This document shows, piece after piece, positions 185 through 2,843 of a stretch of DNA of 64,000 bases (the stretch's first letter is position 1; each line of letters opens with the position of its first letter). The notes below the pieces were generated by a model. That model was not told the DNA's origin. It searched no databases and worked only from the letters and a program-made list of their open reading frames with translations. The translations under genes were made by a program, and so were the position numbers. The DNA is from Carnobacterium jeotgali MS3 (GTDB lineage Bacteria; Bacillota; Bacilli; Lactobacillales; Carnobacteriaceae). Where the stretch lies: the NCBI RefSeq assembly GCF_000745125.1, contig NZ_JQNF01000010.1, positions 558,001 through 622,000 of the forward strand, written 5' to 3'.

Positions 185-568
185 TTATTCTTTCGTTTCA
201 AAATGATCTTCACGATTTGGAACAACGAATAATAGTACTACCGTTATAGCGAGCGCTAACACTATTAGCATTACTTTAACGGCTTGAAGTGGAGCAAGTA
301 GAATTGAAATACCCATCAGAATATAACTGCTTATTAGTATCTTCCATTTTTTGTGTTTAGGAATGGATTTCGTTTCAACGTAATCGGATGCATATATCTG
401 ATACAATTTAGTCTTCTTCAGCCAATCGTTAAACCTGTTGGAACTGTGTGCAAAACAATAGCCCGCTAACAATAAAAACGGTGTCGTCGGCAGCAACGGT
501 AAAATTGCACCTGCTGAACCTAAAAGGAACGATAAAATCCCAACACTGATTAAAAAATGGCGTTTCAT
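185..568 (-). CDS. DUF454 (YbaN-like) inner-membrane protein
   Basis: About 127 residues. The opening MKRHFLISVGILSFLLG and the motif AILPLLPTTPFLLLAGYCFAHS, with its PLLPTTPF core, are the hallmark of the DUF454/YbaN family. Hydrophobic segments lie at the N terminus, around residues 20-38, and as two closely spaced segments near 80-115; the tail is charged. The start was placed at the second Met (568) rather than the ATG at 577, because ATGAGG just before it can serve as a ribosome site, while the first ATG has only an AAAAGG abutting it. The function is unknown. In other bacteria DUF454 genes often sit beside redox or haem-uptake genes, which agrees with the neighbours here. Confidence 0.75.
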   Translation of the reverse strand: MKRHFLISVGILSFLLGSAGAILPLLPTTPFLLLAGYCFAHSSNRFNDWLKKTKLYQIYASDYVETKSIPKHKKWKILISSYILMGISILLAPLQAVKVMLIVLALAITVVLLFVVPNREDHFETKE

Positions 569-629
569 TTGCCTCATTCCTTTTCTTGATTATAAGCTAA
601 ACTATAAATGTATTCTTATCGCTGTCAAT

Positions 630-1715
630 TCAATTCCATTTTTCGCGAGCAAATGGATTTGGTTCAGTAGGATCGCTTAATTCACCACGAAGATTCGGCT
701 CATCAATTGTATTAATAAACGGGGTTCCATTTTGGACGTACTCCATAAATCCGATAGTTTCACCTTTGCGATTGGTAACTGGAAGATAAGTAATAAAAAT
801 TTTACGACCGTCATCTTTGCGTGTAAACCAATGCGTTTCACTCTTACGTGTTCCAGCTGCTAGCTCCCCAGCTAATTTGCCAACAAATCCTCGTAAATGT
901 GGTGGATGGCAATCAATAAAGTGACTTCCTAAACTTGCTTTAGAACGATGAAACTCATCATGATCTTCATTGAAATATTGGAAACGTAAATCTGGTCCAA
1001 CAAATGTAATTTCAACTGGTAACGTATTTAGAATTGCTTCGATTTGTTCAATCGTCAAAGATCCGCCTCTAAACTGGATACGAGGCTCTAAGTCTTCTAA
1101 CTTTGGTGCAGCCTCGGGATCAATCTCACCTCTAGCTATACCTAAAGCATAGTCCAACGCTTCTTGTGCTCCCCGTGAAGAAAAAGTTGCTCCAGAAATC
1201 GAGTCAACTTGAGTAGATTGACTGCGCAAAATTTTTGCAATAATATCTTCTATTGCTTTACCGCCGATATCAGCCGTTTCTTTTCCTTGGTACTCAATTT
1301 TTTCAATTTTATTTTCACTAACAGTGACATTCAGATTAATTTCACCTTTATATCCATCTCCGTTCCCACTGTAGGTTCCGGATGTGAAATGGTGCTCAAT
1401 CGTCCCCGTTTTTTCATTAAATTCGCCATCAATTGGAGCCCGTTCACCGCGTGCAACTCCTAATGCATACTCTACAGCCCGCAAAGTACCTTCTGAAGCA
1501 TATGTAGCACCAGAAACTGTATCAATTTCTACCGACTGTTGTTTAATGATTTCTTCTACCATTTTCGCTACAGCTACGCCACCTTTGTTAGGGGTTTCAT
1601 TTTCTGAGTAATTAATTTTTACTATTTTTTCTCCATCTACTTCTACATCCACGGTAATATAATCATGATACCCTGTTGCTCTTCCTTTGTACGTGCCTGA
1701 TTTAAGATTATTCAT
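630..1715 (-). CDS. Cytosolic flavoprotein: two covalent-FMN (FMN_bind) domains fused to a DUF438-type PAS domain
   Basis: 361 residues with no signal peptide or membrane segment. Residues 1-90 and 108-195 are tandem FMN_bind domains, each ending in the ApbE-modification motif: DTVSGATYAS with acceptor Thr71, and DSISGATFSS with acceptor Thr177. Residues about 215-330 match the C-terminal PAS domain of DUF438 proteins (NTLPVEITFVGPD, then CHPPHL and a GFMEYVQ strand). Two covalent flavins next to a sensor-like domain suggest an electron-carrying or redox-sensing protein. A divergent ApbE gene is the obvious flavinylating partner. An AGGAGG ribosome site precedes ATG 1715. The promoter carries an FNR-type box, so anaerobic induction is inferred. 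No catalytic fumarate-reductase domain is present, so the electron acceptor is unknown. Confidence 0.85.
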   Translation of the reverse strand: MNNLKSGTYKGRATGYHDYITVDVEVDGEKIVKINYSENETPNKGGVAVAKMVEEIIKQQSVEIDTVSGATYASEGTLRAVEYALGVARGERAPIDGEFNEKTGTIEHHFTSGTYSGNGDGYKGEINLNVTVSENKIEKIEYQGKETADIGGKAIEDIIAKILRSQSTQVDSISGATFSSRGAQEALDYALGIARGEIDPEAAPKLEDLEPRIQFRGGSLTIEQIEAILNTLPVEITFVGPDLRFQYFNEDHDEFHRSKASLGSHFIDCHPPHLRGFVGKLAGELAAGTRKSETHWFTRKDDGRKIFITYLPVTNRKGETIGFMEYVQNGTPFINTIDEPNLRGELSDPTEPNPFAREKWN

Positions 1716-1764
1716 ATTAACCTCCTTGGTTTTGTTATTAATTTCACAATTCCTTTACTTCCCT

Positions 1765-1818
1765 AGTATATGTTGAAAAGAAATTTAAAAACTTGATTTA
1801 AATCAAGTTTTTAAATTT
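1765..1818 (-). promoter_or_regulatory. FNR-type operator in a 38-bp palindrome, at -41.5 of the flavoprotein promoter
   Basis: Positions 1781-1818 form a perfect palindrome with two 19-bp arms. Its core, 1793-1806, reads TTGAT-TTAA-ATCAA, identical to the FNR consensus. A minus-strand -10 TATACT lies at 1770-1765, which puts the start near 1758 and the box centre (1799.5) at -41.5, the class II activator position. The -35 position is poor (AGTTTT), as expected for an activator-dependent promoter. Binding by an FNR/Flp family regulator is inferred. Confidence 0.65.
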
Positions 1819-1937
1819 CTACAGAAAAATCTCACATAGCTTTTAGAGTATGTTAAAATGCAACCATATACATTTTACGGCATTTTATATTTATAGATGG
1901 GTGGGTGTAAAAAATCGAACAAAGCAGTATCAACCTT

Positions 1938-2843
1938 ATGGGAACGCAGATTAACCTTTCAATCAAGCATCCTATGGCAGATGAACTATTGGAAAAAGCT
2001 AACCACATGCTGGTAGATTACGAAATGCGCTTCAGCGCAAATAATTCTAAAAGCGCTTTAATGCGCGTGAACCAACAAGCAGGAATACAGCCGGTTCATG
2101 TCGATTCAGATCTATATGAATTGATTCAATTTGGTCAAAAATACAGTTTATCTTCAAAACTTGCACTTAACATCACAATTGGACCGCTCGTTAAACTATG
2201 GAAAATTGGCTTTACAGACGCGCATGTACCTGAACAAAAAGAAATTGAAGAACGACTAAAGCTCATTGATCCAACTGACATTGAATTAGATGACGTAAAA
2301 AAAACGGTCTATTTAACAAAAAAAAGGATGGAATTAGATCTTGGTGCCTTAGCAAAAGGCTATTTTGCCGATAATCTCAAAAAGTTTTTTCAAAGTGAAG
2401 GTGTTCAAAGCGGCATAGTGGATCTAGGCGGAAATGTTTTGACTATTGGAGAAAATCCAAAATACGAAGATGGCTATTGGCGTGTAGGTATTCAAGAACC
2501 TTCGTCAAATCGTGGGGATTTAGTTGGAGCTGTATTGGTAAAAGACAAGTCAGTGGTTACATCTGGTATTTATGAACGCTCACTTAACGTGTCTGAAAAA
2601 AAATACCACCATATTTTTGATTCAACAACCGGCTATCCGATTGAAAATGAATTAGCCAGTGTAACCATCGTTTCAGATGAGTCGATTGATGGCGAATTAT
2701 GGACAACCTTGTTATTTGGACTTGATTCCACTGCTGCTATCCACTATATCGACAGCATTCCTGGCATCGAAGCGCTGCTTATTACAAAAAATAATGAGGT
2801 GAAAATGTCTCGTGGCATTATGCCGTATGTTGTTTTATTTTAA
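1938..2843 (+). CDS. apbE: ApbE-family FAD:protein FMN transferase, cytosolic form
   Basis: 301 residues from the first ATG. ApbE enzymes split FAD and attach FMN to Thr in S-G-A-T motifs of target proteins, using Mg2+. Visible motifs are MGTQINLSI at the start, LDLGALAKGY (133-142), VDLGGN (161-166), TSGIYER (208-214), TTGYP (230-234) and the metal-site segment IDGELWTT near 250-257. No signal peptide or lipobox is present, unlike the second ApbE at 60735-61802, so this enzyme should act in the cytoplasm, where the divergent FMN_bind protein resides. The start is uncertain. ATG 1938 has no ribosome site, family members usually begin 10-20 residues earlier, and the frame is open back to a TAA at 1908, with only an ATC (1914) to start from. 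Confidence 0.85.
   Translation: MGTQINLSIKHPMADELLEKANHMLVDYEMRFSANNSKSALMRVNQQAGIQPVHVDSDLYELIQFGQKYSLSSKLALNITIGPLVKLWKIGFTDAHVPEQKEIEERLKLIDPTDIELDDVKKTVYLTKKRMELDLGALAKGYFADNLKKFFQSEGVQSGIVDLGGNVLTIGENPKYEDGYWRVGIQEPSSNRGDLVGAVLVKDKSVVTSGIYERSLNVSEKKYHHIFDSTTGYPIENELASVTIVSDESIDGELWTTLLFGLDSTAAIHYIDSIPGIEALLITKNNEVKMSRGIMPYVVLF

What the first reader, a model, noticed from the sequence alone, without database searches (positions are those of the whole stretch)
1781..1818. A 38-bp perfect palindrome holding an exact FNR box at -41.5
The 1781-1818 palindrome contains TTGAT-TTAA-ATCAA. Relative to the minus-strand -10 TATACT at 1770-1765, the box centre falls at -41.5, the class II activator position, and the -35 is poor. 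The arms extend well beyond a normal FNR site, so two regulators, or a long operator for the divergent ApbE gene, are possible. This links a covalent-flavin protein and its flavinylase to oxygen or redox state.
Basis: partly seen in the sequence, partly recalled or inferred. Interest (0 to 1): 0.75.

Follow-up and report, generated by a model that had tools for sequence, protein, structure and literature searches.

The report
Redox-gated promoter for flavin electron-transfer genes
A long DNA palindrome between two divergent genes holds a conserved binding site for an FNR-like regulator, placed where such a protein would switch on genes of a flavin-based electron-transfer system, and a second probable redox switch of the Rex type lies next to it.

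Summary
Its core TTGATTTAAATCAA (1793-1806) is an FNR box centred at a predicted -41.5 of the FMN_bind promoter, which has no recognisable -35. All six genomes found with this locus keep a core (exact in 3, variant in 3), and 5 of 6 keep the 22-bp gap to the -10. Of 30 FNR-box matches in the genome only three have a -10 at that gap; they are the three with the exact core, and they precede flavoprotein genes (FMN_bind, acyl-CoA dehydrogenase/ETF, PNPOx-like). The second lies between that operon and a CRP/FNR-family gene ('CRP2'); this arrangement is kept in 8 of 8 family genomes that have CRP2, which makes CRP2 the likely regulator. The outer arms are perfectly symmetric only here. A Rex-like box (1732-1749; 17 of 18 columns invariant) follows the predicted start, so control is probably dual: Flp/FNR-type activation plus Rex-type repression. 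Shared control of apbE is uncertain. CRP2 has four invariant cysteines, not in E. coli FNR spacing, so its signal is unproven. A new member of a known kind: well supported by comparison, untested at the bench.

The parts
1779..1820 (.). 42-bp perfect palindrome; outer 14-bp A/T-rich arms on each side of the core
   Evidence: arms symmetric to this extent only in this genome
1793..1806 (.). FNR/Flp-type operator core TTGATTTAAATCAA, centre 1799.5
   Evidence: conserved in 6 of 6 loci, 10 of 14 columns invariant
1765..1770 (-). -10 element TATACT of the FMN_bind promoter (predicted start about 1758)
   Evidence: 22 bp from the core in 5 of 6 loci, 21 in G004; 5 of 6 columns invariant
1732..1749 (-). 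Rex-like box TTGTGAAATTAATAACAA (minus strand), at predicted +10 to +27
   Evidence: present in 6 of 6 loci, always 16 nt before the ATG; 17 of 18 columns invariant; matched genome-wide
630..1715 (-). FMN_bind x2 + PAS_10 protein, 361 aa, first gene of the operon
185..577 (-). DUF454 protein, second gene
1851..1859 (+). extended -10 TGTTAAAAT of the apbE promoter
   Evidence: second hexamer ends at 1859, TG before it; 10 of 11 columns of 1849-1859 invariant
1914..2843 (+). ApbE (FAD:protein FMN transferase) gene; start at ATC 1914 or ATG 1938, not settled

Best explanation
The palindrome is the operator of an FNR/Flp-type activator, most likely the CRP/FNR-family protein called CRP2 here (G000:C10:363162-363857). 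Shown by comparison: a conserved core at a fixed 22 bp from a conserved -10 without a -35, repeated at two other flavoprotein promoters, one of them beside the CRP2 gene. Inferred: a CRP2 dimer binds at -41.5 and recruits RNA polymerase as a class II activator for the FMN_bind-PAS, DUF454 and Oxidored_FMN-FMN_bind genes. Inferred: a Rex repressor at the conserved box just after the start adds an NADH/NAD+ gate, so transcription is high only when the Flp/FNR-type protein is active and NADH is high. Inferred: the A/T arms at most help bending or RNA polymerase alpha contacts. apbE has its own extended -10 promoter and may or may not respond to the same site.
For: Core kept in 6 of 6 loci and 22-bp gap in 5 of 6. 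Of 30 TTGATN4ATCAA sites in the genome, three have TAYANT at gap 22 and these are the three exact cores; their genes are FMN_bind, acyl-CoA dehydrogenase/ETF and PNPOx_N. Exact core beside CRP2 in 8 of 8 family genomes with CRP2 with a -10 at gap 22 towards the acyl-CoA dehydrogenase gene in 8 of 8. Core plus gap plus -10 found in 13 of 395 order genomes, reversed control 0 in the rows listed; within the family it marks the same 8 of 18 genomes. CRP2 keeps E..SR in the recognition helix. Rex-like box in 6 of 6, the same box with one change before an aldehyde-dehydrogenase-family (AdhE-like) gene, and two Rex proteins in the genome.
Against: No start, binding or expression was measured. TAYANT was chosen after seeing the three promoters; with the looser TA...T, gap 22 still holds just these three, but gap 17 also has three. 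3 of 6 loci carry variant cores, and G004 (TTGATCTATATTAA) also has gap 21. CRP1, a second CRP/FNR-family protein of the genome, has the same E..SR helix. CRP2's cysteines are not in the E. coli FNR arrangement. On the CRP2 side of its own site no -10 sits at gap 22 in any of the 8 genomes, so autoregulation is only suggested by position. The Rex-like box has two mismatches to the S. aureus consensus, and the Rex pattern had 6 matches against 2 for its control.
Confidence: 0.7

Rival explanations
1. The site is used mainly by CRP1, the other CRP/FNR-family protein (next to a ferritin-like/Dps gene), or by a regulator of another signal such as NO, and not by CRP2.
For: CRP1 has the same E..SR recognition helix; FNR-type boxes are shared by several CRP/FNR subfamilies (established knowledge, recalled).
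Against: G001 has a CRP1-like protein only (best match 43% to CRP2), no exact core and no FMN_bind locus; the exact core lies beside CRP2 in 8 of 8 genomes; the dps-CRP1 upstream region printed shows no such box by eye.
Confidence: 0.13
2. The full 42-bp palindrome is a long operator for two proteins or an operator chiefly for apbE.
For: The perfect symmetry is far beyond chance, and G014 and G002 are nearly symmetric too (19 and 20 of 21). With the arms' own base composition, 14 further matching pairs have a chance of about 1e-6.
Against: Arm symmetry falls to 13-15 of 21 in the other three loci; arm columns are barely more conserved than spacer; the CRP2-side copies of the core have exact palindromes of only 14-24 bp; the distance to the apbE -10 varies by up to 11 bp.
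Confidence: 0.1
3. The palindrome is an RNA hairpin, a terminator or a mobile-element scar.
For: It is a perfect inverted repeat.
Against: It lies upstream of both conserved -10 elements and so outside both predicted transcripts; it has no loop; no terminator-like site was found in 1500-2100; the core is conserved at a fixed promoter distance.
Confidence: 0.02

Closest known systems
E. coli-type FNR class II promoters (TTGATNNNNATCAA centred at about -41.5)
   Same: Exact box, predicted -41.5 position, good -10 and no -35, regulator with E..SR helix. Box, position and contact residues as given in PMC7349173 and PMC4505428 (passages).
   Different: Start not mapped; the likely regulator shares only two aligned cysteines with the FNR cluster ligands; arms form a longer palindrome here.
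Flp (FNR-like proteins of lactic acid bacteria and streptococci: L. casei FLP, L. lactis FlpA, S. suis FlpS)
   Same: CRP/FNR fold, no full FNR cysteine set, an N-terminal and a central cysteine. That Gram-positive Flp proteins often have two cysteines and a debated cluster is from PMC5039431 (passages).
   Different: CRP2 has four invariant cysteines (C-x6-C and C-x2-C) and a regulon of flavoprotein genes; FlpS activates the arginine deiminase operon (PMC5039431).
Rex redox-sensing repressor operators
   Same: 18-bp palindrome near the promoter; Rex proteins present; a 17-of-18 identical box before an AdhE-like gene and a matching box before a rex gene.
   Different: Two mismatches to the S. 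aureus consensus TTGTGAAW4TTCACAA (PMC2883068, abstract and passages); combined here with an FNR-type site.

Membership tests
FNR-type class II operator | TTGATNNNNATCAA core | tested here: met
   Exact at 1793-1806; 10 of 10 defined bases also in G002, G003, G014; one deviation each in G004 and G005
FNR-type class II operator | Centre at about -41.5 from the transcript start | tested here: inconclusive
   Geometry to the -10 fits in 5 of 6; start not mapped
FNR-type class II operator | Cognate CRP/FNR-family regulator with E..SR recognition helix | tested here: met
   CRP2 in 7 of 7 aligned orthologs and against E. coli FNR
FNR-type class II operator | Anaerobic, regulator-dependent expression | not testable with these tools
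   Needs expression and binding data
FNR protein (E. coli type, [4Fe-4S]) | Four cluster cysteines at the FNR positions (C20, C23, C29, C122; positions recalled) | tested here: not met
   CRP2 has four invariant cysteines, of which two align with FNR C23 and C122; score against the NCBIfam Fnr model 70 bits, cut-off 228. The N-terminal alignment is weak, and a cluster is not excluded
Flp (FNR-like protein of lactic acid bacteria) | CRP/FNR fold with an N-terminal and a central cysteine | tested here: met
   no Flp sequence of a named species was compared
Rex operator | TTGTGAAW4TTCACAA-like box near a promoter, with Rex present | tested here: inconclusive
   Box with two mismatches, 17 of 18 columns invariant; two Rex proteins over NCBIfam cut-offs; binding not tested

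The most novel reading that the evidence does not exclude
A four-cysteine Flp-type activator runs a small regulon of flavoprotein operons (acyl-CoA dehydrogenase/ETF, a PNPOx-like protein, and a cytosolic covalent-flavin module facing its ApbE). At the FMN_bind and acyl-CoA dehydrogenase promoters it acts at -41.5 and is paired with a second palindrome just after the start (Rex-like at FMN_bind, a related but distinct box at acyl-CoA dehydrogenase), making an AND gate of oxygen/redox state and NADH level.
Probability: 0.38. Interest if true: 0.6.

Novelty: new member of a known kind. Interest (0 to 1): 0.45.

Why it matters
It names a regulator and two candidate signals for a flavinylated electron-transfer module whose proteins appear cytosolic, and turns a single palindrome into a small, testable regulon. 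In the paper on flavinylation systems that I looked into, 'regulat' occurs 0 times in the main text (PMC10979944), and neither the 5 papers listed nor the 12 listed of 47 is by its title or abstract start about FNR or Rex control of an ApbE system. This covers only the held library and those terms.

Tried and rejected
A long two-regulator operator in the arms was set aside as the main reading because the arms are barely more conserved than spacer. A hairpin or terminator was rejected (and position). A genome-wide FNR regulon of 30 sites was rejected: 25 of 30 lie inside open frames of 70 codons or more (plus the window site) and 27 of 30 lack a -10 at gap 22. The pattern's own control (2 matches of the reversed pattern against 30) is not composition-matched base pair by base pair, so I do not lean on it. 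Distant homologs of the FMN_bind-PAS protein (44 and 45% identity, G096 and G296) showed no FNR-type site in the 600 bases scanned upstream. Of the five matching order-level genomes outside the family, two were not counted as support: L137 (gap 23, before a gene that looks like a cupin) and L141 (gap 23, inside the end of an open frame). The palindrome TTGTG[CT]ATAN2TGAACAA of the acyl-CoA dehydrogenase promoters was searched in the own genome: 2 exact matches, one at that operon and one before genes that look flagellar; with one mismatch there was no excess over the control (7 and 5 against 7 and 8). It is therefore not assigned to Rex. A scan of named genomes with the FMN_bind-PAS protein found no relative. 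Paper searches gave background only. Labels 'cupin', 'flagellar', 'glycosidase', 'Dps-like' (in L140) and 'metal-binding-like' are by eye, from no family search.

Full report
What is there. It is the longest perfect palindrome of the window, the next being 14 bp, and 40 simulated windows gave 12-22 bp. Its centre holds TTGATTTAAATCAA (1793-1806). To the left, transcribed leftwards, is a protein with two FMN_bind domains and a PAS_10 domain (630-1715), then a DUF454 gene and, outside the window, an Oxidored_FMN-FMN_bind fusion; to the right is ApbE. The three FMN_bind domains carry SGAT flavinylation-type motifs, and the four genes are found together in all six loci.

Comparison of the locus. 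A full-length FMN_bind-PAS gene was found in G000 and five relatives: four of the same genus and one of another genus, that is in 6 of 18 family genomes. In an order-level sample it was found at E 1e-40 or better in 8 of 395 genomes, the two extra ones being distant. The intergenic alignment and the promoter measurements show, read in the window's direction, cores TTGATTTAAATCAA in G000, G002 and G014 and TTGATCTAAATCAA, TTGATCTATATTAA and TTGACCTAGATCAA in G003, G004 and G005; a -10 TATACT in five and TATAAT in G005; a gap from core to -10 of 22 bp in five and 21 in G004. A start 7 nt after the -10 puts the centre at -41.5 (-40.5 in G004). Invariant columns: core 10 of 14, -10 5 of 6, Rex-like box 17 of 18, apbE extended -10 10 of 11, left arm 7 of 14, right arm 5 of 14; spacers 7 of 16 (1716-1731), 5 of 15, 3 of 8, 7 of 28 and 12 of 38. 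So the core, the -10 elements and the Rex-like box are the conserved parts, and the arms are only slightly above spacer.

Which sites in the genome are like it. TTGATN4ATCAA occurs 30 times in G000; 25 lie inside open frames of 70 codons or more and 5 do not (for 29 of them, plus the window site). At a gap of exactly 22 bp, on either side, TAYANT occurs at three of the 30 sites; over gaps 16-29 it occurs otherwise only twice (gap 17 at L053, gap 19 at L056). With the looser TA...T the same three are at gap 22, and 0-3 sites are at each other gap. The pattern was chosen after the promoters had been seen. These three are also the only sites with the full TTGATTTAAATCAA. They precede the FMN_bind gene, an acyl-CoA dehydrogenase gene followed by an ETF gene, and a 125-residue PNPOx_N protein. 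Over seven genomes the exact 14-mer has 12 copies: 3, 0, 3, 1, 1, 1 and 3 in G000, G001, G002, G003, G004, G005 and G014. Six lie beside CRP2, three are at this locus, two precede the PNPOx-like gene (G000, G002) and one lies inside a glycosidase-like open frame of G014.

The regulator. G000 has two proteins with a PF00325 match. Counting matches of 68% identity or more as CRP2 (the next is 48%), 8 of 18 family genomes have it, among them all six with the FMN_bind locus. All eight have the exact core upstream of CRP2 and a -10 at gap 22 towards the divergent gene, which is acyl-CoA dehydrogenase by family search in G000 and by its N-terminal codons in the others. On the CRP2 side the -10 candidates vary and none is at gap 22, so self-regulation is only suggested. 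The composite pattern, core plus 21-23 bp plus TAYANT, occurs in 13 of 395 order-level genomes, with 0 for the reversed control in the rows listed; within the family it marks the same eight genomes and none of the other ten, partly because the site sits next to CRP2 itself. Of the five matching genomes of other families, one has CRP2 and the acyl-CoA dehydrogenase operon in the same arrangement (L138), one has the site 30 bp from a divergent CRP/FNR-family gene (L139), one has it before three genes of which the third is CRP/FNR-family (L140), and two are unclear or probably chance (L137, L141). In named genomes, of 22 loci fetched with the CRP2 alignment, 2 have the exact core (Marinilactibacillus piezotolerans DSM 16108 and a Carnobacterium MAG, 109 and 139 bases before the matched stretch); 10 have a TTGA[TC]N4[AG]TCAA site within 500 bases and 12 do not.

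Is it FNR? CRP2 aligned with E. coli FNR keeps E..SR in the recognition helix, the residues reported to contact the FNR box (PMC4505428, passages). Its cysteines differ: C-x6-C near the N terminus and C-x2-C in the middle, invariant in the seven proteins aligned of the eight. Two align with FNR cluster ligands (ligand positions recalled). CRP1 and the two Flp-like proteins of L139 and L140 share just those two aligned positions. Gram-positive FNR-like proteins often have two cysteines and their cluster is debated (PMC5039431, passages). So the site looks like an FNR class II site, but whether CRP2 senses oxygen through a cluster, through a disulfide, or senses something else, is open.

A second switch. 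TTGTTATTAATTTCACAA (1732-1749) starts at predicted +10 here and at +12 to +17 in the others, always 16 nt before the ATG, in 6 of 6. The pattern TTGTKAWN4WTMACAA has six matches in G000 against two for the control: this one; one before an aldehyde-dehydrogenase-family gene that I take to be AdhE (only its first part was fetched), 17 of 18 bases identical; one before a rex gene; one lying 32.5 bp from a 266-residue gene and 186.5 bp from a divergent Fe-ADH gene; one 112.5 bp before a gene of unknown kind; and one inside an open frame. Two Rex proteins pass an NCBIfam cut-off. S. aureus Rex binds TTGTGAAW4TTCACAA and NADH lowers its binding (PMC2883068, abstract and passages); our box has two mismatches. 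The expected logic is activation by CRP2 and repression by Rex until NADH rises. The acyl-CoA dehydrogenase promoters carry a related but different palindrome, TTGTG[CT]ATAN2TGAACAA, at +19 to +24 in 8 of 8 and a variant in G153; the PNPOx-like promoter has it in G002 and not in G000. It was not assigned.

What remains uncertain. No start, binding or expression was measured. The apbE promoter has a conserved extended -10, but its distance to the box centre varies (-66.5 in three, -68.5 in two, -77.5 in one), so shared control is possible and not shown. That activating FNR sites sit mostly at -41.5 is taken from PMC7349173 (passages, citing Myers et al. 2013).

Verdict. It needs two changes: the arms are probably not the second site, and a Rex-like box probably is.

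Noticed in passing
window 1905-1938: apbE start: in this genome GTG is followed at once by TAA (1905-1910), and in G002 the same position is GTT; an ATC/ATT codon (here 1914-1916), 9 nt after an AGGTGG-like ribosome-binding stretch, is kept in 6 of 6. A non-AUG (AUU/AUC) start is possible; the next ATG is 1938.
   Followed up: partly
L068-L075 and L138, acyl-CoA dehydrogenase promoters: An unassigned palindrome TTGTG[CT]ATAN2TGAACAA lies just after the predicted start in 8 of 8 family genomes, with a variant in G153; it resembles a Rex box but differs at the inner positions.
   Followed up: partly
L140: In a genome of another family the exact core with a 22-bp gap precedes three genes that look metal-binding-like, Dps-like and CRP/FNR-family, suggesting the same operator in a different Flp circuit; in the window's genome CRP1 also lies next to a ferritin-like (Dps) gene.
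   Followed up: no
G000:C10:62462 and G000:C5:290702 (L119, L113): Two Rex paralogs in one genome; the second has a Rex-type box about 58 bp before its gene. All 7 genomes searched have at least two PF06971 matches over the cut-off.
   Followed up: no
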